Of a stretch of DNA of 20,359 nt, positions 425-17,221 are shown in pieces. The position numbers and the translations under genes were made by a program. Below the pieces are notes generated by a model. It made no database searches. It had not been told where the DNA came from and saw only the letters and a program-made list of their open reading frames with translations. Source of the stretch: a virus; IMG/VR virus record IMGVR_UViG_3300028008_000147, positions 1 through 20,359 of that record. One strand, written 5' to 3'. Within the stretch, counting starts at the first letter, position 1, and every line of letters starts with the position of its first letter.

Positions 425-691
425 TTACTTTTCCCAAATTTTAATTTTAAGAGTACCTTCACCCTTAATTAGTCGATGGAATTCCATCTTGTTAATGTTA
501 TAGAGTTTGCCCTTTTGCAAATCCTCTGGTAGTTTGTTGTCCATCTGAAGTTGCCAACCAGCACCTTCAACAACCGTAATTTCTCTATCGTTTCTATCAC
601 GATGCCAGATTAGTTCATTTTCAGATATATCCTCTGAAAAGGTTCTAATCTTATAATCTCCCTCTAGTTCGTCCTTGTAAGGATTTACCAA
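425..691 (-). CDS. Small cupin-like protein, UUG start
   Basis: 88 residues. The only start that fits is TTG at 691, served by a perfect GGAGG nine bases upstream (701-705) that lies inside the Gly codons at the end of the preceding gene. The start overlaps that gene's stop by 7 bases. The pattern W-H-R-D-R, then GWQLQMDN, then a Gly turn, then EFHRLIKGEGTLKIKI looks like a one-domain beta-barrel of the cupin type, with the single His (F-H-R-L-I-K-G) where cupins place a metal ligand. Small proteins of this look are common in T4-like marine phages. No enzymatic role can be assigned. It sits between the NMNAT-like polyprotein and a charged protein, so a virion or assembly role is possible (inference). 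Confidence 0.7.
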   Translation of the reverse strand: MVNPYKDELEGDYKIRTFSEDISENELIWHRDRNDREITVVEGAGWQLQMDNKLPEDLQKGKLYNINKMEFHRLIKGEGTLKIKIWEK

Positions 692-2763
692 AAGAAATTA
701 CCTCCACCTGATAAACCTAATTGTTTTGCATAACGTGGTAAGTTACACGCCCAGTATCCTGCCTTGGTTCTGTCTTTTTGATTTTCACAATCGTGTCGGG
801 CAGCAAAACTCTTTCTTGCTTCCTTGTCATTCAACTTGACTTTCAGTCCAGTTGTATCACCCCAAGAAACTTTCTTCACATTACCTGTTGATGGGTCTTT
901 AACATACACATAGTATTTCTTAGGCCCACCGACTTTAGGTTTATTTAGTTCTACATCCTTGTCTTCGTCAAAAGACTCCATAGGACAATCTAGTGGAACT
1001 GGGTTACCATTGTACATGGCATATTCGCCAATGTTACCATCCAGTAGTTCTTTATCAAAACCTACTGGGTTTAGTTTACCACTTTCATATAGTTTTCTTT
1101 TTTCTTGAAAGAATTTATAGTATGCTTCAGAACCCACACGATATTGATTGGATTCGATTAAACTAGAAGTTTCACATTCGTTACAACAACTAGGTGTACC
1201 ACAGTCAAGATGTTCTTTGAATGAGAATACCTTTTGGCCTGGTGTCATCTTTTGCCTACTTTCTCTACTTGCATCTGTTCCAATTTCTCTAGGGTCTTGT
1301 TCTTCTTTTTTACCCTTCGCCTGTTTCCACAAGTCTGCATCAGCAGTTGTTCTTGTCTTACCACCAGTAAGGAATGAGTTCACTCTTGCGAATGCCCATT
1401 GTTGTGGAGTTGTGCCAGGGCGATGTCCTGTCTTCCATGCTGCCATACCTCTATCATATACTTTTTTCAAAATACCATAAGGTATACCAGACTTCTCTGC
1501 TTTTGTAATCAGTCCTTCAATCTTTTCGTTTAATTGAAAGTCTTCTTTTTTTAATAGTTTTTTGCGTTTTTCTATACTATCTGCTCTATCCTTTGCCAAT
1601 TGAGCAGACTTACCAGTTGCATATTTAAGATTTGGATATGTCTTAGATTGTTTTAACTTTTCATTCTTTGGAACACAGTTAGGAACTTCTTTTCCATTCT
1701 TCTTTTTCATACCAACTTGTTTGTGAGTATCCCAACATGGGCCTTCGCTCTCACCATACATCTGTTTGAATTTCTTTGTACTCTTAGATGGTTTAGTTTC
1801 AGCATGACCATCGCCAGGAGCAGGCCCGTCTTTACCTTTTGCAAAGTGTGCCGCACGTTTCTGTTTAGTGGACTTAGACATCTCATCACCATCAGCATCT
1901 TTTGCATAATACTTTGCTGGTTCTGTACCTTCTCTGTCCTTAATATCTTTATCTTGTTTGACTTCGTACAACCACTTCTTGTGTGTAGTACCGTCTTGTT
2001 CTGCGAATACGAGGTAATTAGTTCCTCTACGAATAACTTCACCAGATACTCCAGTGTAGTTGTCCTCAACTATATCGCCGATAGAATATAACTTATTCTC
2101 TACATATAAATCACGAATGACATCTTCGTCTGTCATCACGTTTGTTCTTGGAACAAATGATTCACGAATACCCATATACTTGCGAACATCTTTGAACAAT
2201 GACATTCCCTGTTTGAATGTACTTGGAACTCCAAGTTTGAAAGTATCGAAATCATTTGATGATGCAGCAGCACGCATTTTAGATGCAGACATTCCTGTCA
2301 CACCTTCTGCGTCTGGGTCACGTTCACCAGCAGAGATTACTTCAATGTTGTCAAAACCATAGTAACCATGTCTTGCTTCTACACCGTTATACTTGTTCAG
2401 TAGACCATTGAATTCAGTAACTCTATCTGAACCAACAACCATTACGATTGATTTGTGTCCTTTATTGTGCAGTGATACTGCAATCTCAAACACATTTCTT
2501 GCTTTATCAACAACAATAGTTCTAGAATGTTTTGGGAACATCTTCTTCATATATGCAACTTTCTTTGCATATGGAAGTGGGTCTTTCTTTGCATTTTCAG
2601 AGTGAGATGCGAATACATAGTATGGTGCGCCGACATTCTTCTTTGCCTGACCAGCGACTGCATCTAATAATTTCTCGTGTCCTGTAGTTGGTGGGTTGAA
2701 TCTACCAAATGTAAATACGGCAGTGTCACCCCTTGCTTCTACTATTTCTGAAAACTTCCTCAT
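685..2763 (-). CDS. NMNAT/cytidylyltransferase-like multidomain phage protein
   Basis: 692 residues. Residues 13-180 form a nucleotidylyltransferase domain: GRFNPPTTGH at 20-29 is the HxGH-type nucleotide-binding motif, and MSASKMRA at 158-165 matches the ISSTxxR-type second motif. The family transfers AMP or CMP from NTP, and NMN adenylyltransferase in NAD synthesis is the closest known activity. Next come a small SH3/KOW-like barrel (about 226-268, GDIVEDNYTGVSGEV), a linker rich in Lys and Asp, a C-W-D...V-P-N-C-V-P segment (342-366), a DUF5824-like helical segment (415-485), a Cys cluster (521-530) and a C-terminal domain (612-692) with conserved H-D-C, Y-W-A-C and R-Y-A-K. The start overlaps the upstream stop as ATGA. 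Residues 6-10 (I-V-E then A-R) resemble a T4 gp21 prohead-protease site. Substrate specificity is not established. Confidence 0.85.
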   Translation of the reverse strand: MRKFSEIVEARGDTAVFTFGRFNPPTTGHEKLLDAVAGQAKKNVGAPYYVFASHSENAKKDPLPYAKKVAYMKKMFPKHSRTIVVDKARNVFEIAVSLHNKGHKSIVMVVGSDRVTEFNGLLNKYNGVEARHGYYGFDNIEVISAGERDPDAEGVTGMSASKMRAAASSNDFDTFKLGVPSTFKQGMSLFKDVRKYMGIRESFVPRTNVMTDEDVIRDLYVENKLYSIGDIVEDNYTGVSGEVIRRGTNYLVFAEQDGTTHKKWLYEVKQDKDIKDREGTEPAKYYAKDADGDEMSKSTKQKRAAHFAKGKDGPAPGDGHAETKPSKSTKKFKQMYGESEGPCWDTHKQVGMKKKNGKEVPNCVPKNEKLKQSKTYPNLKYATGKSAQLAKDRADSIEKRKKLLKKEDFQLNEKIEGLITKAEKSGIPYGILKKVYDRGMAAWKTGHRPGTTPQQWAFARVNSFLTGGKTRTTADADLWKQAKGKKEEQDPREIGTDASRESRQKMTPGQKVFSFKEHLDCGTPSCCNECETSSLIESNQYRVGSEAYYKFFQEKRKLYESGKLNPVGFDKELLDGNIGEYAMYNGNPVPLDCPMESFDEDKDVELNKPKVGGPKKYYVYVKDPSTGNVKKVSWGDTTGLKVKLNDKEARKSFAARHDCENQKDRTKAGYWACNLPRYAKQLGLSGGGNFFW

Positions 2764-4010
2764 TTATCCCATGCCTTTATTGCAGTAAAGTTGTTGAAAC
2801 TAAATTCCATTCTGTCTACGAGTTTTACTGCATCTCCTGATACTCTATCAATTGCAACGTAACCCTCTGGGTTAGTTACTTTGAAACCATTTGCAGTTTT
2901 AATAAACGTACTCGTTAATCCCTTAACACTATTTAGTTTGCTTACGATACCCATTTTAGCATCCACAAGGTGTCCTTGGAATGCAATGATATTTTCTAAA
3001 TTCTTTGTATGTTTCTTTACTTCACGAACATACTCGGTTTGTATATTTGTATACTTCTCTTTACCCTTAACACTCTTGGCCTTATCAATCTGTTTTTGGA
3101 TTGACATTTCAACCCACTTTTCATATCCCCTTGCGTGTTGACTAGGATTACTAATCTTCTGTCCCTGACGAACTTTACTATTATTGTAAGTCTTCAGTGA
3201 TGCACCAGCAAGCGCTCCAGTCATACTATTCTGTAGGTTAAGAAACTTTGTTAGATTAGCAGAATTAATTTTTTGAAATGTAGAACCAGCAGATGATAGA
3301 GATTTAGTAACAGTTGCAGTCTCACTTGCAGTCATTGTCGCCTTACCAGATACATCTTTATAAGTTGCATCATCCATCCACACGTTTCTTGATTTTGTTA
3401 ACTTACTTATACTTGCACCAAAAGATGCTTTCATATCCTGAAGTGCTGAACCTGAATAAGTTGTATGCCAGACAATACCAATCTTTGCAGTATTGATTTG
3501 TTTACCAATATCTGAAGTTGGGTCTACTGCATATACAATTGTATTTGGTTGGAATGTAATGAATGACTTGCCATCAATCATCTCTGTAGATTTATCTTCT
3601 GATGTAAACATCAAGTCGCCTTGAAGTACACCTGTGATACCCAAAGATGAGAACTCTGCAAGTGCTGTTTTGAACTTACTATTCAGTGAACCAGATAGTC
3701 CATCATCATCTATCTCTTTTGCAGTCTTATATAACTTAGGAGTTGCGTTAAATACTGACTTCTTCGCAACAAAGAACTTACCATCTTCTGGGTCAATACC
3801 AGCAAAGATTGCAGGAGCACCGTCCCATTTGACAGTCATGTTTACAGATGAACGTGATTCACCAGATAACATATCTCGTAAAGAACGCATAAAGTTAATC
3901 GCCGCACGCCCACCAGGCACACCGAAATTAAGTATTTCGTCTTCTATATGTTCTAGGTGTAGGTTCTTCCCACCTTTGTCTTCGGCAAGGAAGTTTGAAA
4001 AATCTATCAT
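2760..4010 (-). CDS. KxDG nucleotidyltransferase (ligase-like) protein, DUF6267-like
   Basis: 416 residues, ATG at 4010. I read covalent-nucleotidyltransferase (DNA/RNA ligase superfamily) motifs: TVKWDGAPA with K61 as candidate adenylated Lys (motif I), GVLQGDLMF at 127-135 in place of motif III, NPEGYVAID at 380-388 (motif IV, E382) and AVKLVDRMEF at 394-403 (motif V, K396). The order is right, but motifs III and IV are about 245 residues apart, so a large helical insertion splits the core. Related proteins are widespread in T4-like marine phages as a DUF (DUF6267 from memory) of unknown function. The N-terminus MIDFSNFLAE resembles a T4 capsid-targeting peptide. It is coupled by ATGA to the NMNAT-like gene. 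Ligase, capping or tRNA/RNA repair activities are all conceivable, and an inactive structural derivative cannot be excluded. Confidence 0.75.
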   Translation of the reverse strand: MIDFSNFLAEDKGGKNLHLEHIEDEILNFGVPGGRAAINFMRSLRDMLSGESRSSVNMTVKWDGAPAIFAGIDPEDGKFFVAKKSVFNATPKLYKTAKEIDDDGLSGSLNSKFKTALAEFSSLGITGVLQGDLMFTSEDKSTEMIDGKSFITFQPNTIVYAVDPTSDIGKQINTAKIGIVWHTTYSGSALQDMKASFGASISKLTKSRNVWMDDATYKDVSGKATMTASETATVTKSLSSAGSTFQKINSANLTKFLNLQNSMTGALAGASLKTYNNSKVRQGQKISNPSQHARGYEKWVEMSIQKQIDKAKSVKGKEKYTNIQTEYVREVKKHTKNLENIIAFQGHLVDAKMGIVSKLNSVKGLTSTFIKTANGFKVTNPEGYVAIDRVSGDAVKLVDRMEFSFNNFTAIKAWDK

Positions 4011-4047: not shown

Positions 4048-4055
4048 TATTTATA
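4048..4055 (-). promoter_or_regulatory. T4-type late promoter box
   Basis: TATAAATA on the minus strand, the exact consensus used by the T4 late sigma factor gp55. It lies 38 bases upstream of the ATG at 4010 and overlaps the -10 box of the sigma70-type promoter at 4053-4081. It fits late expression of the left block, which looks virion-associated. Confidence 0.65.
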
Positions 4056-6823: not shown

Positions 6824-7609
6824 TTACATAAACTCCTGTAAGTTTGTTGTTTGACTTTGCTTCCAAGCCTTTTTATATTGTATTTTAATCTTATTGAATG
6901 TGCCACCCATCATTTCTTTTGTTCCATTATATGAAACATACTCTGGGAACTTCTCAATAAGTTTTTGGTGGTTGTCGTTTATCATTTTCAAGTCTCTGCC
7001 CATATCCATACACCCACCTTGTGTACCGACAAAATCACTTAGATAAACAAACCTATCCCATACTCTATTAGGATATCCTTTTGATAATAGTTGTAACGAT
7101 AACGAAATATCTTCTGCTGTTGATAACTCCCAATCTAGTTCATCTGCACTAGGAAGTTGTTTACCATCAAAGAAGAATACTTCTGCCGTTCCAGTATTAT
7201 CTATATATTCTTTACCAGCGGGCGGTAACCCACCAGTTCTGCATCCACCCCATGTCACACCTTCATCCATCCATTTGGATGTTTCGGTAAGCATATGATT
7301 CCAATCGTCTTCGGTCATTGTACGTTTAGTCAGTTCACCGTCATGCCAAGGTTTCCTTGTTTTCATAACAATGTCATCGTCCATTACAATGTACCGTTTA
7401 TTTTTACCTTGCTCCCAAATCCACTTACGAGTTGCAGTAATACCACAATCATTTTCTGGTAATACTATCATTGGTAAGTGAGCATGGTGAGTGCGTTCTT
7501 TGGGTTGAACAACCAAAACACATTTGTTCTGTATGCTGGATGGCATATTGAAAAACGTGAGTTGATTATTATATCTTCCCAGCGTGGGAATAAAAATTGT
7601 ATCTATCAT
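6824..7609 (-). CDS. TAGT-like GT-A glycosyltransferase
   Basis: 261 residues, ATG at 7609. It opens with FIPTLGR (6-12) and has V-L-V-V-Q-P near 31-36. L-P-E-N-D-C-G-I-T-A-T-R (50-61) is followed by YIVMDDDI (73-80), whose acidic cluster supplies the DxD metal and nucleotide-sugar site. T-A-E-D at 164-167 is the probable second acidic motif. This order matches the TET-associated glycosyltransferase (TAGT) group, phage GT-A enzymes linked to sugar transfer onto hydroxymethylated cytosine. It has its own promoter 7 bases upstream and is followed by an Sm-like protein and an oxygenase. A DNA-base acceptor is likely from family and context but unproven, and a protein or glycan acceptor is possible. 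Confidence 0.8.
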   Translation of the reverse strand: MIDTIFIPTLGRYNNQLTFFNMPSSIQNKCVLVVQPKERTHHAHLPMIVLPENDCGITATRKWIWEQGKNKRYIVMDDDIVMKTRKPWHDGELTKRTMTEDDWNHMLTETSKWMDEGVTWGGCRTGGLPPAGKEYIDNTGTAEVFFFDGKQLPSADELDWELSTAEDISLSLQLLSKGYPNRVWDRFVYLSDFVGTQGGCMDMGRDLKMINDNHQKLIEKFPEYVSYNGTKEMMGGTFNKIKIQYKKAWKQSQTTNLQEFM

Positions 7610-8617: not shown

Positions 8618-9726
8618 CTTATAATATCAATCTTGTTCATAGTATCTTGATTCCAAACTTCTAGTTCTCTACGGAGTCTACCTTCTGCAACCATCTTATT
8701 ATATCGTTTAGTAGCAAGTTTCTTCCACCATGCAATTACAGCATCAAGTTCAAATCTATCATAATTTTCTGCCTTTGTCAATAGATTTGTCTTACCCAAT
8801 AATACATCTCTTGCATTGTCGTATCCATAGGTACTGCTGTAAAATCTCTTCTGGGTAGTTACTTCACCAGCCTTATTCATTGCATCTGTAAATAGTTCGT
8901 ATGCTTTTGTATCGTGTTGTTTCAATGATGACTTGATTGTTCCTACCATCTTAGTCTGCATTTTTAGTTTACGAGATGATGCACCTTTGTGTATCAAGTC
9001 CTCTCCACCATTCCGTTCAGTAAACCAATCACGCATCTCCATATAGATATCTTCACCTAGTGTCAATAGAAACTTAGACTGAGTATCGCCCTTGTATCTT
9101 AGATATGGTTTCATTCCATCGTACATGGAGGCCCCCTTCAAATTGCCATAAAGAGAAGTTGTCTCAAAAAGGCAGAACTCTGTATCATACTTCTTGTTTA
9201 GCATTCTACGAGTTGCATGAGAACAACAGATTGCAGCAAGTAACTTACCACCCAAACAGTTATACCCAAATGGTTGTGCCGCCACAATGTGAAACCCCAT
9301 GATAGCACGTTTGTTGAAGATATCCAAATCAGGAACTCCACCAAGAAAATCATTACGAGGTTTAGAATTGATTAGTGGTGAACCATAACGAATAAACCCT
9401 ACGATAGTATTTGTAGTTGTTTCCTTAACAACTAGTTTCAAAGTCTTGCCTGGGTTCTCATCTGGACTGAATGATGCAGTCTTTTCTAATAGTGTATCAT
9501 ATACTTTGTTTGGTATTTCTACAACTTGAAAATTCATATCTTCTGGATGCATATCATAATCTTGAAACAAGTCATCCTCAATACTCATGCCTGGCAAACC
9601 AGCAGGAATGTCTTTTACTCGTTCAATCTTTCTTGCACGAAAGTAATCGTCAATCCGTCCAAAGTCTTTGAAGTATTCCATCAACTTGGTTGCGGCATAT
9701 ATTGAATCTTGTCTATCTAATATCAT
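8614..9726 (-). CDS. DruA/DUF4338-like protein
   Basis: 370 residues, ATG at 9726, with ATGA overlaps at both ends (gp43 upstream, GT-B gene downstream). Residues 95-215 resemble the DUF4338/DruA core: T-I-V-G-F-I at 107-112, R124-N-D-F-L-G-G, F-N-K-R-A-I-M-G-F, then P-F-G-Y-N-C-L-G-G-K-L-L (152-163), C-L-F-E-T-T-S-L-Y-G (185-194), K-G-A-S-M-Y and R-Y-K-G-D-T. DruA is a component of the Druantia anti-phage system and its biochemical activity is unsettled. The C-terminal 150 residues are helical, Lys/Arg-rich and not recognised. Between the polymerase and a glycosyltransferase it is a candidate DNA-modification or counter-defence factor (inference). The family call is by pattern and could be wrong. 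Confidence 0.6.
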   Translation of the reverse strand: MILDRQDSIYAATKLMEYFKDFGRIDDYFRARKIERVKDIPAGLPGMSIEDDLFQDYDMHPEDMNFQVVEIPNKVYDTLLEKTASFSPDENPGKTLKLVVKETTTNTIVGFIRYGSPLINSKPRNDFLGGVPDLDIFNKRAIMGFHIVAAQPFGYNCLGGKLLAAICCSHATRRMLNKKYDTEFCLFETTSLYGNLKGASMYDGMKPYLRYKGDTQSKFLLTLGEDIYMEMRDWFTERNGGEDLIHKGASSRKLKMQTKMVGTIKSSLKQHDTKAYELFTDAMNKAGEVTTQKRFYSSTYGYDNARDVLLGKTNLLTKAENYDRFELDAVIAWWKKLATKRYNKMVAEGRLRRELEVWNQDTMNKIDIIR

Positions 9727-12257
9727 CCAAAAAAGTCCTCAAGTGTTGTTTGTGTTCCATAAGAACGGTCAATCTTCCAACCAATCTGGTTACAGATAAA
9801 TGTCAGAGGTTCAACGAATGCCTTATCGAACTGTGTATCATAATCTAAATATTTGTGAATGTCAAACTCTTTTGGTAATTTAGTCATAAAAGAAATGACA
9901 CCTGATTGCATATGGTTAGGAGTTCTCATATTCAAGAATTTGATTTTCTCACCTTCTTGCACAAGAGGATACTTTCCAGTCAACTTCTGTTTCTTTAGAA
10001 AGTGATTGTAAAGTATAACGCCTTTGATGTGCATGGGAGCACCCTTCTTAAAGATGCCTGATGAACTACTCCACTTTGCAATACCATTACATCCACGAGG
10101 GAATGCAATCTCTTCTGGAGGCAACTGCATGAATTCATCACGAAACTCTTGGATAAAATCATTAATGTCTTTCTCCGTACCAGACATGATAATCTTCAAT
10201 GCCTGTTTAATCTTTTCACGACAAGGAGCAGGAGTACTTGACTTTACTGCTTCAATACCCATGACCTTTAGTGATGCTTCTTGGTAACGAACACCTTCCA
10301 CATCCCATGCATTTAGAATGTATCTTTTCTTTGCAGTCCAGATACCCTTGTCTGCAATGACCTCTCGTGCCATCTGCATCTTTTGGTCGAATGCATTTAC
10401 ATACTCAGCAAGGTCTTTATAACACGAATCAATAAAAGGTTCAATCTTCTCTTTAGCAATTCTATCAAGGAAGTCCACCGCCCGTTCACGATAGTTATCC
10501 TCTGACTCATTATCTCGTTTCTGTAACACCTTATTAATAAGTTCGTCAAACCTAATGTATACTGAATCCGTATCCGATGCAATAACATAGTCTACTCCTG
10601 TACTATTTAGCAACTTGTTCAGATACTCATTCAGTGCTTTTTCAATCCACCGAATAGATAACTGACCAGAGGTTGTGATACCTTCTGCAATCCTCAAATC
10701 ATAATAACGAAACCACTCATTACCAATCGCACCATAGGCAGAGTTCAATGAAATCTTTCTTGCCATCTGGATGTTATGATAACGACTTACATCGTTTGCA
10801 TACTTGGGGTCTTTAGTATCTTCATATTTCTGTTTAGCGTCCAACATCTTTTTCTTGTAGATAGTACGGTCATCATACATCTCTTGCATCATCTCAGGCA
10901 AGAACCCTTGGGTCTTTGTTCTGAACAACGCACCATTTGGTGTACAAGTAACTGATGCTGGTTTTAGTGGTGTCAAATCATGTTGTCTATCCAACATCTC
11001 ATTAACAGATTTCTCCTTGTCAAATCCCATAGTTTTGGGAAGCAAAGTCTCTGGAGAAATATTGTATTGCATAATCAAGTGAGGATACAAAGAGTTCAAG
11101 TCAAAAGACATAACCCATTTGTGTTGACCAACTTGTGGGTCTTTCACATATGCACCTACATACTTATCACTCTTGTGTATCTGTGATGCCTTTTGAGGAA
11201 TGACAATCTTTTTCTTGAGCAAGTGATTGTAGATTAGAACATCCCAATACTTAACAGACGTAAATGAGTCAGAGATATTAACCTTGGCCTCATACGTCAT
11301 AGTCAATATCAAGTCCAACAATTTCATCTTGTCATCGATACGGTCAACTAGTTCAACGTCCATGATGTTATAGTCAAGGAATGATTGATAGTCTTTAGTA
11401 TACCATTCACGAAAAGTCTCAAAAGGATTCTCATCCTTGCGTTCACCTAGTTCCACAAAAGCAATATGGTCAAGACGATATGACTCCTGACCAGTGTAAG
11501 TAAACTTCTTGTATAGTTGTAGATAGTCAACCTCTTCAACACCAAGAATATCATACACTTGGTCTTTACGTCCAAAACCAGAGTTCACCATCTTAGAGTT
11601 TACAACACCCCAAGGCGATAAACGCTTCATTGCATCTTCACCCATTTGGGATTTGATACGGTTACAGATATAAGGAATATCAAAGAACTCGGTATTCCAA
11701 CCAGTGATTACGTCTGGATGGTCACTTTCCCACCAAGCAAGAAACTGTGCAAGAAGTTCACGTTCAGTTGCACATTGAATGTACTGAACATCTTCTCTGT
11801 CATTGTGATAGTCGTGCAAACCCCAAACCTTAATACGTCCAGTATCATGGTTCTTGATAGTAATAGACAGCATTGGTTCTGCTGCTTGGTCTGCATTTGG
11901 GAAACCGTTCTCACACTCAACCTCAATATCGATTGTAACAATACGCATCTTAGCGATGTCATATTCAATCTGATTAGGATAGGTTTCTGAGAGATAGGTA
12001 TATGGGAAAGAAGTCATACCATACACAAGGTGTGGTTGACTTTCTCTTTGTTGCAAATGTTCCTTCGCTTCCTTGATTGAAAGGAAGGGCATTGGTGCAA
12101 CGTGTTTACCTTCTAAGGTTGTCCACCCTGTAGGTTTCCCTACAGGATAGTAGAGAGTGGGTTCGTACTTAACTTTGAAGTTAGAACGAACACCATTCTT
12201 TACGGCACGAACAAGTAATTGGTTGCCCCATTGGGCGATGTGTGTGTAGAAATTCAA
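9723..12257 (-). CDS. 43: Family B DNA polymerase (T4 gp43-like), UUG start
   Basis: 844 residues from TTG at 12257. This start has GAGG seven bases upstream and gives an N-terminus (MNFYTHIAQWGN) that aligns with T4 gp43 (M-K-E-F-Y-I-S-I). An earlier in-frame TTG at 12275 would sit at the predicted transcription start with no ribosome site. Exonuclease motifs: D-I-E at 110-112 (T4 D112/E114), NTEFFDIPYICNR, and Y-N-I-M-D. Polymerase motifs: SFDLNSLYPHLIMQYNIS (A), KISLNSAYGAIGNEWF (B) and ASDTDSVY (C). The extreme C-terminus T-T-L-E-D-F-F-G matches the clamp-binding peptide that docks on gp45. All catalytic residues for synthesis and proofreading are present. It is about 50 residues shorter than T4 gp43 (898). 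Confidence 0.97.
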   Translation of the reverse strand: MNFYTHIAQWGNQLLVRAVKNGVRSNFKVKYEPTLYYPVGKPTGWTTLEGKHVAPMPFLSIKEAKEHLQQRESQPHLVYGMTSFPYTYLSETYPNQIEYDIAKMRIVTIDIEVECENGFPNADQAAEPMLSITIKNHDTGRIKVWGLHDYHNDREDVQYIQCATERELLAQFLAWWESDHPDVITGWNTEFFDIPYICNRIKSQMGEDAMKRLSPWGVVNSKMVNSGFGRKDQVYDILGVEEVDYLQLYKKFTYTGQESYRLDHIAFVELGERKDENPFETFREWYTKDYQSFLDYNIMDVELVDRIDDKMKLLDLILTMTYEAKVNISDSFTSVKYWDVLIYNHLLKKKIVIPQKASQIHKSDKYVGAYVKDPQVGQHKWVMSFDLNSLYPHLIMQYNISPETLLPKTMGFDKEKSVNEMLDRQHDLTPLKPASVTCTPNGALFRTKTQGFLPEMMQEMYDDRTIYKKKMLDAKQKYEDTKDPKYANDVSRYHNIQMARKISLNSAYGAIGNEWFRYYDLRIAEGITTSGQLSIRWIEKALNEYLNKLLNSTGVDYVIASDTDSVYIRFDELINKVLQKRDNESEDNYRERAVDFLDRIAKEKIEPFIDSCYKDLAEYVNAFDQKMQMAREVIADKGIWTAKKRYILNAWDVEGVRYQEASLKVMGIEAVKSSTPAPCREKIKQALKIIMSGTEKDINDFIQEFRDEFMQLPPEEIAFPRGCNGIAKWSSSSGIFKKGAPMHIKGVILYNHFLKKQKLTGKYPLVQEGEKIKFLNMRTPNHMQSGVISFMTKLPKEFDIHKYLDYDTQFDKAFVEPLTFICNQIGWKIDRSYGTQTTLEDFFG

Positions 12258-12264
12258 GACTTTT

Positions 12265-12269
12265 CCTCT
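12265..12269 (-). promoter_or_regulatory. Ribosome binding site fixing the gp43 start
   Basis: AGAGG seven bases before TTG at 12257. With the promoter at 12284-12312 the predicted leader is only about 20 bases, so an upstream start at 12275 would be essentially leaderless. T4 gp43 represses its own mRNA through a hairpin at the ribosome site. I see no clear hairpin here. Confidence 0.6.
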
Positions 12270-12283
12270 TATCAACTGTAATC

Positions 12284-12312: not shown

Positions 12313-12530
12313 GAGAAAAGTGAAATTTGTTCTTCTGTTGTGAAGTGTCTATCCACCATGTCTATAATATCTTGTGCATTAGCAATCTTTAATAGTTCAG
12401 ATTCTACTGCCTCTGCAATGTCAGGATGCTCTCCGATACCAGCAGGGTTCTTCAGATATACTGCAATGTTTGCTTTGTGTATTGCAATCTTACCTTCATT
12501 GTGTTTCTTAATCGCTTCCAGTAGTGTCAT
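12309..12530 (-). CDS. 73-aa helical phage protein, unknown function
   Basis: ATG at 12530, overlapping the end of the RimK-like gene by 23 bases, with AAGG upstream. Predominantly helical (LLEAIKKHNEGKIAIHKANI, then A-E-A-V-E-S-E-L-L-K-I). Similar short proteins occur beside gp43 in marine T4-like phages, but no function is known to me. It is the last gene of the clamp-loader operon, and its TGA stop lies within the -35 box of the gp43 promoter. Confidence 0.7.
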   Translation of the reverse strand: MTLLEAIKKHNEGKIAIHKANIAVYLKNPAGIGEHPDIAEAVESELLKIANAQDIIDMVDRHFTTEEQISLFS

Positions 12531-13884
12531 TATTTTCGCCTTTCATTGTTGTAATAATCAATTTCTTCTGGGGGTCTACCATAACATTCATCTCCGTCAT
12601 GGCAAATCTATTTAGAAGAACACTAGTTCCTCTTTTACTTCTATCATCAAGACCAAACATCAACTGATGTGTGTGTCCCATAAATTCAACTTCTAACTGA
12701 ACGACTGGGCGTTTATCAACACCACCACCAGTTCTCGCTTTATAATCTTTCACAAGTTTAGTGGTTAGGGTTTGTCCACCAAACGTAGTGAATGTAATTT
12801 TACTACCATTAATTTTTATGTCCTCAGCATGAAGAACTGAGTAAGCACTATTTCCTGTATCAAATTTAGTTTCAACTTCACCGAAAGGTTTGATATCAAC
12901 CATCTCGTGAAATCCACATCTGATAGGAACAGTGTATCTGTTTTTTGATTCTTTATAATGTTCCAAAACTTCTTTTGCAACATTCAGTCCAGAGTTTGCT
13001 TCCTCTACACCTTCTGTGCCAGGCGAACTATTTACTTCCAAGAAATAAGGTTTGCCTTTATGTGAAATAAAATCTACTGCAACGAAATCACCATCAACTG
13101 CTTTTGCGGCAATCAAACACTGTCTAATTTCTTCTTCTGATAAATCATATTTCTTAACACCAGCACCCTGTGTGTAGTTACTTCTGAAATCACCTTCAAC
13201 AACTTCTCTTTTCATTGTGCCTATGATTTTAGAACCAACTATAAGCACACGAATATCACCGTCAGTTTTAATATATTCCTGAATGAGAATATCTGTATCA
13301 GGGTCTTGTTTATAAATTAACTGTACCAAAGAATCTAATGCACGTTTTGATTCTACAAACAGAACTCCAACTCCACCAGCGCCTCTAAGTGTTTTTAGAA
13401 TGATAGGGAATTTTGTATCTAGTTCCTCTAGTGCATTATCAATATCTTTGTCTGAAGGAAGTAGAACTGTCTTTGGTTGGTCTAGTCTAAAATCTTTTAG
13501 ACGAACATAACTACGATACTTATCAGCACAAATACTAATAGTGGTTCTACTGTTAATGCAAGTTATACCAATTCGTTCTAGTTCTGATATCATATCTAGA
13601 TGACTATCTCGTGTAGGTGTACCTCTAACAAAAACCACAGTATCTTTAGCACTGACTTGCATACTGTCTTCTCTACTCTTAATGATATATTTACCATCAT
13701 CAAATACTAAAGATGCATTTTTGAACTCGCACAGTATAGTATCTAATCCAAGTTTCTTTGCTTCCTTTTCAAATTTATCAGCAGTGTTCTTTCGTACATC
13801 GCCTACTTCAACTGAAAGAATAACTACCTTGTAGTTTCCATCTGTTTTTTCTTCTGTAATGAATTTTGAAAAAGATTGTGTCAA
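12508..13884 (-). CDS. RimK-like ATP-grasp ligase fused to RimB-like protease domain, UUG start
   Basis: 458 residues, TTG at 13884, one base after the regA stop; no ATG occurs near it. Residues 17-315 are a RimK-type ATP-grasp: K-T-L-R-G-A-G-G-V-G-V (164-174) is the ATP-binding loop and FLEVNSSPG (281-289) holds the Mg-binding Glu and Asn. Residues 320-447 match the RimB/'ATP-dependent zinc protease' fold, a retropepsin relative, with F-D-T-G-N (341-345), V-L-H-A, K-R-P-V-V-Q-L and a terminal V-D-P. In bacteria RimK adds glutamates to ribosomal protein S6 and RimB trims them, as separate proteins. Here both are one chain inside the replisome operon. The N-terminus MTQSFSKFITEE resembles a T4 capsid-targeting peptide. 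The target could be ribosomal S6, another host protein or a virion protein. Confidence 0.85.
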   Translation of the reverse strand: MTQSFSKFITEEKTDGNYKVVILSVEVGDVRKNTADKFEKEAKKLGLDTILCEFKNASLVFDDGKYIIKSREDSMQVSAKDTVVFVRGTPTRDSHLDMISELERIGITCINSRTTISICADKYRSYVRLKDFRLDQPKTVLLPSDKDIDNALEELDTKFPIILKTLRGAGGVGVLFVESKRALDSLVQLIYKQDPDTDILIQEYIKTDGDIRVLIVGSKIIGTMKREVVEGDFRSNYTQGAGVKKYDLSEEEIRQCLIAAKAVDGDFVAVDFISHKGKPYFLEVNSSPGTEGVEEANSGLNVAKEVLEHYKESKNRYTVPIRCGFHEMVDIKPFGEVETKFDTGNSAYSVLHAEDIKINGSKITFTTFGGQTLTTKLVKDYKARTGGGVDKRPVVQLEVEFMGHTHQLMFGLDDRSKRGTSVLLNRFAMTEMNVMVDPQKKLIITTMKGENNDTTGSD

Positions 13885-13885
13885 T

Positions 13886-14290
13886 TTAAGCTTCTCTTTT
13901 TTTACCTATGTTATATTTAGTCTCTAACACCCACTCATTTTTCTCTTTGAAGGCAATAACCTTGATTTGAGATAATGGTGCTTTAGGTTCAGCAGTACCC
14001 ATGATTTCAATCAGTCCCCAATCCCCTAGTAAACTAGCGATAGAGTTTCGTCTTGATATATCGTTTTCGTTAAAGTTTGTTTCTTTACCATCCAGAGCAA
14101 ACAATTCTTTGAAGTGTACAATATAGTACTTTCCTTGTTTGTGTAGAATGTGGCAGGACTGATATAGTTTTTTCTCTTTACGAGATGCAACACCAATCCT
14201 TGATAATGTCTCACGAACCTTTAAGAAGTCATCTGGTTCTTTTAGTTTTACTTCCAGCATCGCTTCTGGATGCCAATCAATTTCTGTCAT
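13886..14290 (-). CDS. regA: RegA translational repressor
   Basis: 134 residues, ATG at 14290, ATGA overlap with gp62. EPDDFLKVRETLSRIG and LYQSCHILHKQGKYYIVHFK are the signature core of T4 RegA, and S-R-R-N-S-I-A-S-L-L-G-D-W-G-L matches its C-terminal half. RegA binds A/U-rich sequences over the ribosome sites of early phage mRNAs (gp44 and gp45 in T4) and blocks translation when replication proteins are in excess. Its place after gp62 is the T4 order. The gene ends over a run of seven A residues on the coding strand (13897-13903). Confidence 0.95.
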   Translation of the reverse strand: MTEIDWHPEAMLEVKLKEPDDFLKVRETLSRIGVASRKEKKLYQSCHILHKQGKYYIVHFKELFALDGKETNFNENDISRRNSIASLLGDWGLIEIMGTAEPKAPLSQIKVIAFKEKNEWVLETKYNIGKKREA

Positions 14291-16657: not shown

Positions 16658-17089
16658 TTATTTAATTTTAATTACTTTAGGTTTCTTCTCCTCTGGAATA
16701 ATTCTTTCCAAATTGATATAAAGCAATCCGTCTTTCATATCAGCACCATTTACAAAAACGTCTTCTGCAAGTGTAAATAATTTCTTGAATGACCTTTGCG
16801 AAATACCTTTATGAAGATACTCTGTTGTGTCCACTTCAGTCTTATCCTCACCAGAATCCTTTGACTGAACCATAAGAGTATTGTCTTTTGTTTCAATCGC
16901 AATATCGTCTTTTGAGAAACCAGCAACTGCCATTTCAATAGTGTACTTATCGTCACTATGTTTTACGATATTATATGGTGGGTAAGTATGGTTCTTCGAT
17001 GGGTAATTAAGCATCGAATCAAACATTCTATCGAAACCGATAGAGTAAGTGTTAACCCTTGATGGGTCAATAGTTAAAGATGTATTCAT
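16658..17089 (-). CDS. hsp20: Small heat-shock protein (Hsp20 / alpha-crystallin)
   Basis: 143 residues from ATG at 17089, with AGGAG six bases upstream (17096-17100). The frame is open further upstream, but that part covers the late promoter and has no ribosome site. YNIVKHSDDKYTIEMAVAGF begins the alpha-crystallin domain, and G-L-L-Y-I-N-L is the conserved strand near its end. A short I-P-E-E-K-K-P-K tail follows. Hsp20 proteins are ATP-independent chaperones that hold unfolding proteins in oligomers, and they are a near-universal accessory of marine T4-like phages, probably helping virion protein folding. The TATAAATA box upstream marks it as late, unlike the replication genes around it. 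Confidence 0.93.
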   Translation of the reverse strand: MNTSLTIDPSRVNTYSIGFDRMFDSMLNYPSKNHTYPPYNIVKHSDDKYTIEMAVAGFSKDDIAIETKDNTLMVQSKDSGEDKTEVDTTEYLHKGISQRSFKKLFTLAEDVFVNGADMKDGLLYINLERIIPEEKKPKVIKIK

Positions 17090-17148
17090 GTTTTTCTCCT
17101 TTGTTAAGCAAGATACATTTGATACCTGACTATTCAGCATATCACGTT

Positions 17149-17156
17149 TATTTATA
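17149..17156 (-). promoter_or_regulatory. T4-type late promoter for hsp20
   Basis: TATAAATA on the minus strand, 60 bases upstream of the hsp20 ATG and preceded directly by the hairpin at 17159-17181. No sigma70-type -35 box accompanies it. Confidence 0.75.
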
Positions 17157-17158
17157 AC

Positions 17159-17181
17159 GGTGGTTTTTAGGGAGAACCACC
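17159..17181. other. Inverted repeat upstream of the late promoter
   Basis: Seven-base perfect stem GGTGGTT/AACCACC with a 9-base loop, ending two bases upstream of the late box. No U-run follows, so it is not a classical terminator. It could end DUF932 transcripts weakly or shield the hsp20 promoter. Confidence 0.5.
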
Positions 17182-17194
17182 AAACTCCATTTTG

Positions 17195-17221
17195 TGTCAC
17201 AGAGTAAGCATTTTTGTGACA
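17195..17221. other. Second inverted repeat in the DUF932-hsp20 gap
   Basis: TGTCACA/TGTGACA arms (17195-17201 and 17215-17221) with a 13-base loop, extendable by a bulge. It is either an RNA hairpin or a protein-binding dyad; nothing in the sequence decides between them. Confidence 0.4.

What the first reader, a model, noticed from the sequence alone, without database searches (positions are those of the whole stretch)
12508..13884. RimK ligase and RimB-like protease fused in one phage protein within the replisome operon
The glutamate-adding and glutamate-trimming activities are separate genes in bacteria. Here one chain carries an ATP-grasp with intact metal and ATP motifs and a D-T-G retropepsin-like domain. 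A phage could use it to set the length of a poly-glutamate tag on ribosomal S6 or on its own proteins. The N-terminus (FSKFITEE) also looks like a capsid-targeting peptide, although the gene sits in an early operon.
Basis: partly seen in the sequence, partly recalled or inferred. Interest (0 to 1): 0.7.

Follow-up and report, generated by a model that had tools for sequence, protein, structure and literature searches.

The report
Packaged glutamate-tagging enzyme of marine phage
A marine T4-like virus encodes one protein that should both add and trim glutamate tails on other proteins, and its first 11 residues match the address label T4-like phages use to load proteins into their heads, so it is probably injected into the host with the viral DNA.

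Summary
The minus-strand ORF 12508-13884 (458 aa, TTG start) lies between regA and gp43. It is a RimK-family ATP-grasp glutamate ligase fused to a retropepsin-like domain of family PF05618. Catalytic and polyglutamate-contact residues checked are invariant in 33-62 relatives, both domains are under purifying selection, and predicted folds match RimK (7qys, 5zct) and RloA/DUF785 proteases (2pma, 9g58, 9g59).

The fusion is not new. Monier et al. 2008 reported phage rimK genes, one regA-linked, some with a C-terminal DUF785 (=PF05618), and noted cellular fusions in Synechococcus and Halobacteria.

The N-terminal extension F-x-x-F-[IL]-x-E conserves the four positions that in T4 IPIII govern capsid targeting (4, 7) and gp21 processing (8, 10). 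It is present in 156 of 160 distinct relatives from three lineages, including one that lacks the protease domain. It resembles their gp23 cleavage site and occurs on cytidylyltransferase GC190, found in S-SM1 virions by mass spectrometry. A distant fused homologue in YerA41 is annotated as a structural protein.

Best reading: a virion-packaged, injected polyglutamylation enzyme. The substrate (S6 or another protein) is untested.

The parts
12508..13884 (-). rimK-retropepsin fusion gene, 458 aa, TTG start at 13884, stop at 12508-12510
13852..13884 (-). N-terminal tag, residues 1-11 (M)TQSFSKFITE, predicted capsid-targeting sequence; predicted gp21 cut after E11
   Evidence: 156 of 160 distinct relatives; F5, F8, I9, E11 98.8% conserved against 63% for neighbouring columns; disordered in the model
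13528..13833 (-). N-terminal lobe of the RimK fold, residues 18-119
   Evidence: structure match to RimK 7qys and 5zct over about 300 residues
12961..13527 (-). ATP-grasp (RimK) domain, residues 120-308
   Evidence: PF08443 1.9e-38
13030..13074 (-). metal-binding residues D271, E283, N285 of the ATP-grasp
   Evidence: invariant in 62 of 62; aligned to E. coli RimK
12541..12915 (-). retropepsin-like domain, residues 324-448
   Evidence: PF05618; fold match to 2pma, 9g58, 9g59
12853..12861 (-). catalytic motif D342-T-G344; predicted poly-Glu contacts K340, R392 and R415 lie in the same domain
   Evidence: 62 of 62; K340, R392, R415 invariant in 33 of 33
13886..14290 (-). regA translational repressor, directly upstream
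   Evidence: PHROG 242, 5.5e-62
9723..12275 (-). gp43 DNA polymerase, downstream
   Evidence: PHROG 262
2760..4010 (-). second tagged gene: DUF6267 protein, N-terminus MIDFSNFLAED
4048..4055 (-). T4-type late promoter motif TATAAATA, about 40 nt upstream of the DUF6267 gene
685..2763 (-). third gene with a degenerate tag: cytidylyltransferase, N-terminus MRKFSEIVEAR
   Evidence: homologue S-SM1 GC190 starts MKKFSAFLNEAE and is in virions

Best explanation
The gene makes a RimK-type alpha-L-glutamate ligase carrying its own RimB-like poly-glutamate protease. An 11-residue N-terminal tag brings it into the prohead, where the gp21-type protease cuts after E11; the enzyme is packaged and then injected with the DNA, as T4 does with its internal proteins and Alt. 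In the newly infected cell the ligase adds short alpha-glutamate tails to the C-terminus of a host protein, most likely ribosomal protein S6, and the in-cis retropepsin limits tail length. Shown here by sequence and structure comparison: fused architecture, intact catalytic residues, both domains under purifying selection, a conserved tag matching the T4 capsid-targeting sequence. Inferred: packaging and injection (about 0.85), poly-Glu adding and trimming chemistry (about 0.75), S6 as target (about 0.4). The confidence given below is for packaging plus poly-Glu chemistry with S6 as the leading but unproven target.
For: Tag: 61/61 window-type, 59/59 Mosig-type and 36/40 Melnitz-type distinct proteins carry F-x-x-[FY]-[ILV]-x-E; the exceptions are degenerate versions. 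In T4 IPIII, residues 4 and 7 govern targeting and 8 and 10 processing (PMC9026906); these align with F5, F8, I9, E11, the four most conserved positions of the extension. T4 IPII and IPIII begin MKTYQEFIAEA; gp23 of Melnitz and Mosig contains AFLSE|AA where T4 gp23 has SFLTE|AE. Cytidylyltransferase GC190, detected in S-SM1 virions by mass spectrometry, begins MKKFSAFLNEA. Motif at N-termini: Melnitz 3 observed against 0.10 expected; window 2, with no internal occurrence. gp21 protease present in Mosig and Melnitz. Untagged cyanophage RimKs lack the extension. The fused YerA41 homologue is annotated structural in a phage with 63 particle-associated proteins. Enzyme: RimK is the closest solved fold; retropepsin domain Z 14.0-14.9 to RloA/DUF785; RloA poly-Glu contacts K46, R114, R137 correspond to K340, R392, R415, invariant; pN/pS 0.105 and 0.130.
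Against: No virion proteomics exists for this virus or its tagged relatives in what I could read. The gene sits in the replication operon with no convincing late promoter of its own: CTAAATA at 13914-13920 is not kept in relatives and lies in the regA coding sequence. The YerA41 homologue lacks the tag motif, and its virion preparation held many replication enzymes. RimK's acceptor-pocket arginine R8 does not look conserved, so the acceptor may not be S6. One whole lineage lacks the protease domain, so trimming is dispensable there.
Confidence: 0.5

Rival explanations
1. Packaged and injected as above, but the substrate is not S6: another host protein, or a phage protein such as an internal head or DNA-binding protein.
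For: It belongs to the broad RimK family, not the S6-specific RimK model: 101.3 bits against a cut-off of 331. N-lobe contacts of P. aeruginosa RimK such as R8 are not evidently kept in the alignment.
Against: The closest solved folds are true RimK proteins, including RimK bound to RpsF (5zk6), ahead of LysX/ArgX. Mosig also encodes S21 and a peptide deformylase and a tmRNA, so translation is a plausible target.
Confidence: 0.3
2. Not packaged: an ordinary replication-time takeover gene that modifies ribosomes in the infected cell, with the N-terminal motif serving another role.
For: Location beside regA and gp43 in the window and in Mosig, and after regA in Melnitz, in a replication operon; no conserved late promoter.
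Against: Conservation of exactly the T4 targeting and processing positions across three lineages, and the same tag on an experimentally found virion protein.
Confidence: 0.13
3. The ligase makes free poly-alpha-glutamate, or glutamylates a small molecule, rather than tagging a protein.
For: RimK itself makes free poly-alpha-glutamate (stated in PMC12239564); the family includes small-molecule ligases such as MptN and CofF.
Against: Those equivalog models score far below their cut-offs; fusion to a poly-Glu protease would undo the product.
Confidence: 0.07

Closest known systems
Marine phage rimK with C-terminal DUF785 (Monier, Claverie and Ogata 2008, PMC2530865)
   Same: Same kind of gene: regA neighbour, ATP-grasp plus C-terminal PF05618, T4-like marine phage contigs
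   Different: In the passages I read they do not discuss an N-terminal tag, virion packaging or poly-Glu proteolysis (RimB's activity was shown later)
Pseudomonas RimK and RimB
   Same: Same two folds; intact ATP-grasp metal/ATP residues, DTG and poly-Glu contact residues
   Different: Two separate proteins; no N-terminal tag; no RimA partner seen in the window
RloA retropepsins (9g58, 9g59) and Lpg0085 (2pma)
   Same: Same fold and DTG; poly-Glu contact residues conserved
   Different: RloA are secreted stand-alone enzymes with signal peptides; DTGN here instead of DTGA
T4 internal proteins IPI-IPIII and Alt
   Same: Short N-terminal targeting sequence with a [IL]xE cut site; Alt is an injected enzyme that modifies a host protein
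   Different: Different enzymatic domain; here the gene is in the replication operon; packaging not yet shown
YerA41 gp066
   Same: RimK plus PF05618 fusion, about 33% identity, annotated as structural protein
   Different: Lacks the F-x-x-F-[IL]-x-E tag

Membership tests
RimK-family alpha-L-glutamate ligase (TIGR00768 / PF08443) | Score above the curated cut-off | tested here: met
   167.8 against 143.4 bits; PF08443 132.4 against 21
RimK-family alpha-L-glutamate ligase (TIGR00768 / PF08443) | ATP lysines and D/E/N metal residues intact | tested here: met
   K122, K164, D271, E283, N285 invariant in 62 of 62
S6-specific RimK (NF007764) | Equivalog score | tested here: not met
   101.3 against a cut-off of 331 bits; so not filed as an S6 ligase by sequence
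S6-specific RimK (NF007764) | Glutamylates the C-terminus of S6 | not testable with these tools
   needs biochemistry
PF05618 / RimB-RloA retropepsin-like proteases | Score above the Pfam cut-off | tested here: met
   whole protein 25.7, below 27; domain alone 30.4; relatives 28-31.6
PF05618 / RimB-RloA retropepsin-like proteases | Catalytic DTG and retropepsin fold | tested here: met
   DTG in 62 of 62; Z 14-15 to 2pma, 9g58, 9g59
PF05618 / RimB-RloA retropepsin-like proteases | Poly-Glu contact residues (RloA K46, R114, R137) | tested here: met
   K340, R392, R415 invariant; correspondence from motif spacing (lysine two before the catalytic D; 23-residue R to R distance) and the paper's numbering
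PF05618 / RimB-RloA retropepsin-like proteases | Active homodimer | not testable with these tools
   only monomer prediction available
T4-type capsid-targeting sequence | N-terminal [FY]xxF[IL]xE within about 10-12 residues | tested here: met
   156 of 160; T4 IPII/IPIII compared directly
T4-type capsid-targeting sequence | Phage has a gp21-type prohead protease | tested here: met
   PF03420 in relatives Mosig and Melnitz; not in the window itself, which is a fragment
T4-type capsid-targeting sequence | Protein found in virions, cleaved after E | not testable with these tools
   no proteome for these phages; the same tag is on S-SM1 GC190, which is in virions

The most novel reading that the evidence does not exclude
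Marine T4-like phages carry in their heads, and inject, a single-chain poly-glutamate writer and trimmer that resets the host ribosome (or another host target) before phage genes are expressed: injection-delivered protein polyglutamylation.
Probability: 0.4. Interest if true: 0.85.

Novelty: new variant of a known kind. Interest (0 to 1): 0.62.

Why it matters
Virus-delivered modification of host machinery is well known for ADP-ribosylation (T4 Alt), but I found no report of an injected glutamate ligase. If true, translation in very abundant ocean bacteria (SAR11, OM43) would be altered in the first minutes of infection, and the 11-residue tag gives a simple way to find other head-packaged enzymes in T4-like marine phages, most of whose genes have no known function. 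The single chain would also be a convenient model for how RimK and RimB work together.

Tried and rejected
Late promoter for rimK: CTAAATA at 13914-13920 is not conserved in relatives (CAAAATA) and falls in regA coding sequence; rejected. YerA41 viral-contig scan found no relatives. The tag motif was also sought in five YerA41 proteins, four annotated structural and RNR alpha noted as present in the particle; it is not there. The one genome-contig scan gave only a virus-like contig in a Parcubacteria MAG and two archaeal ligases, so host rimK and S6 C-termini were not examined. PDB search with the protease profile gave a top hit to designed repeat proteins (v31Bagel8) through 20-residue chance matches; ignored. 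Cyanophage RimK-only proteins (S-RIM12, S-RIM8, S-RIM32, S-CAM8) have no N-terminal extension, so the tag is not general to phage RimK. Papers on cyanophage virions naming gp184 were not found; the link came through Sullivan et al. 2010 and the S-SM1 record. In Mosig the strict motif marks only RimK (1 observed against 0.18 expected), so that genome alone would not have been convincing.

Full report
What is there. The ORF at 12508-13884 is on the minus strand, 458 aa with a TTG start at 13884. It begins just after the regA stop codon and is followed by a 73-aa ORF and gp43; upstream lie regA, gp62, gp44 and gp45. The window is an IMG/VR-type virus record of 20,359 bases from a T4-like marine virus. 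Its closest cultured relatives for this protein are Pelagibacter phage Mosig (46% over 97%, same place beside regA and near gp43) and, for the N-terminal 310 residues, the OM43 phage Melnitz (35%).

Domains. Residues 120-308 match PF08443 RimK at 1.9e-38 and TIGR00768 above its cut-off. The S6-specific RimK equivalog is far below its cut-off (101 against 331 bits), so the protein is a RimK-family ligase, not by sequence a proven S6 ligase. The C-terminal 135 residues match PF05618: below the cut-off in the whole protein, above it when the domain is scanned alone, and 14 of 14 relatives match. AlphaFold models give RimK of Pseudomonas syringae and E. coli as best matches for the whole chain, and DUF785/RloA retropepsins for the C-terminal domain (Z 14.9, 14.2, 14.0), with retroviral and Ddi1 proteases next at about 10.

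Active sites. In 62 aligned proteins K122, K164, D271, E283, N285 and D342-T-G344 never vary. RloA residues that contact poly-glutamate, K46, R114 and R137 (catalytic D48; PMC12239564), correspond by motif and spacing to K340, R392 and R415, invariant in 33 of 33. pN/pS is 0.105 for the ATP-grasp and 0.130 for the protease. Both halves look like working enzymes. In Pseudomonas, RimB trims RimK-made tails and thereby sets their length (PMC7343187), and RimB acts as a retropepsin (PMC11957791).

Prior art. Monier, Claverie and Ogata (2008, PMC2530865) described more than a hundred marine phage-like contigs with rimK, one flanked by regA, several with a C-terminal DUF785 (the old name of PF05618), and noted fused cellular proteins in Synechococcus (domain order reversed) and Halobacteria. 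I confirmed a 461-aa archaeal fusion on a Halorarius plasmid. So the fusion itself is known and is not unique to phages.

The tag. Relative to RimK and to cyanophage RimK-only proteins, which start directly at the first strand, this protein has an extension of about 17 residues, predicted disordered. Residues F5, F8, I9 and E11 are 98.8% conserved while the other columns of residues 2-25 average 63%. In a wider survey 61/61 window-type, 59/59 Mosig-type and 36/40 Melnitz-type distinct proteins carry F-x-x-[FY]-[ILV]-x-E; the four others have degenerate forms such as LKDYIAE. Melnitz-type proteins lack the protease domain, so the tag is more widely kept than the protease. A tree puts all tagged proteins in one clade (97/94), with the fused, untagged YerA41 protein outside it; the simplest reading is an ancestral fusion, gain of the tag, and loss of the protease in the Melnitz line.

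Why it is read as a capsid-targeting sequence. T4 IPII and IPIII begin MKTYQEFIAEA. Mutagenesis of IPIII assigned targeting mainly to residues 4 and 7 and processing to residues 8 and 10 (PMC9026906); these are the equivalents of F5, F8, I9 and E11. The gp23 proteins of Mosig and Melnitz have AFLSE-AA where T4 gp23 has its SFLTE-AE site, and both phages encode a gp21-type protease. In Melnitz the strict motif stands at three N-termini against 0.10 expected; in the window at two (RimK and the DUF6267 protein) with no internal occurrences. Crucially, cytidylyltransferase T4-GC190 was found in purified S-SM1 virions by mass spectrometry (PMC3037559), and that protein begins MKKFSAFLNEAE; its relative in this window (41% over 269 residues) begins MRKFSEIVEAR. 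The fused YerA41 protein is annotated as structural, and 63 particle-associated proteins were reported for that phage; I could not read the peptide table, and that preparation held many replication enzymes, so this is supporting evidence only.

Mechanism. Most likely the protein is carried into the prohead by its tag, cut after E11, packaged, injected, and then glutamylates a host protein while its own protease limits tail length. Packaging is strongly indicated but not shown. The chemistry follows from the conserved residues. The substrate is open: S6 is the default because RimK is the closest fold, but the acceptor-side residue R8 of P. aeruginosa RimK does not look conserved here.

Weak points. 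The gene is in the replication operon with no conserved late promoter, whereas the tagged DUF6267 gene has TATAAATA at 4048-4055. Dimer geometry of the protease, host S6 and host RimK were not testable here.

Noticed in passing
window 2760-4010 (-): DUF6267 protein with the same N-terminal tag (MIDFSNFLAED) and a T4-type late promoter TATAAATA at 4048-4055; it contains a KWDGAP motif like the KxDG of nucleotidyl ligases.
   Followed up: partly
window 685-2763 (-): 692-aa cytidylyltransferase with a degenerate tag (MRKFSEIVEAR); the N-terminus of cyanophage homologues (351 records cover most of the query) is like MKKFSAFLSEA, and S-SM1 GC190 is a virion protein.
   Followed up: partly
L027:10951-12036 (Melnitz): Unknown 361-aa protein with the tag MQGFKTFLSEAK, directly upstream of the tagged DUF6267 gene; no Pfam match.
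   Followed up: no
window 13882-13884: The gene uses TTG here; in the window-type relatives 54 of 61 use TTG or GTG, while Mosig-type mostly use ATG. A weak start may set copy number.
   Followed up: no
L021:7595-9050 (MZ577095): Annotation appears shifted by one gene: the name 'RimK-like ATP-grasp domain protein' is on the short regA-like CDS and the true RimK is called hypothetical.
   Followed up: partly
L118 (PBQF01000074.1): A 'Parcubacteria' MAG contig encodes this phage protein at 52% identity; probably a virus contig binned by mistake.
   Followed up: no
window 6824-7609 (-): Glycosyltransferase-like protein matching PHROG 842 (beta-glucosyl-HMC-alpha-glucosyltransferase, 4e-21); may point to modified DNA or glycosylation.
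   Followed up: no
window 16658-17200 (-): Hsp20-like ORF is probably over-extended: TATAAATA at 17149-17156 lies upstream of a likelier start near 17089.
   Followed up: no
L024:9932-10141 (Mosig): Mosig encodes ribosomal protein S21, a peptide deformylase and a tmRNA as well as this RimK, a set that suggests tuning of host translation.
   Followed up: no
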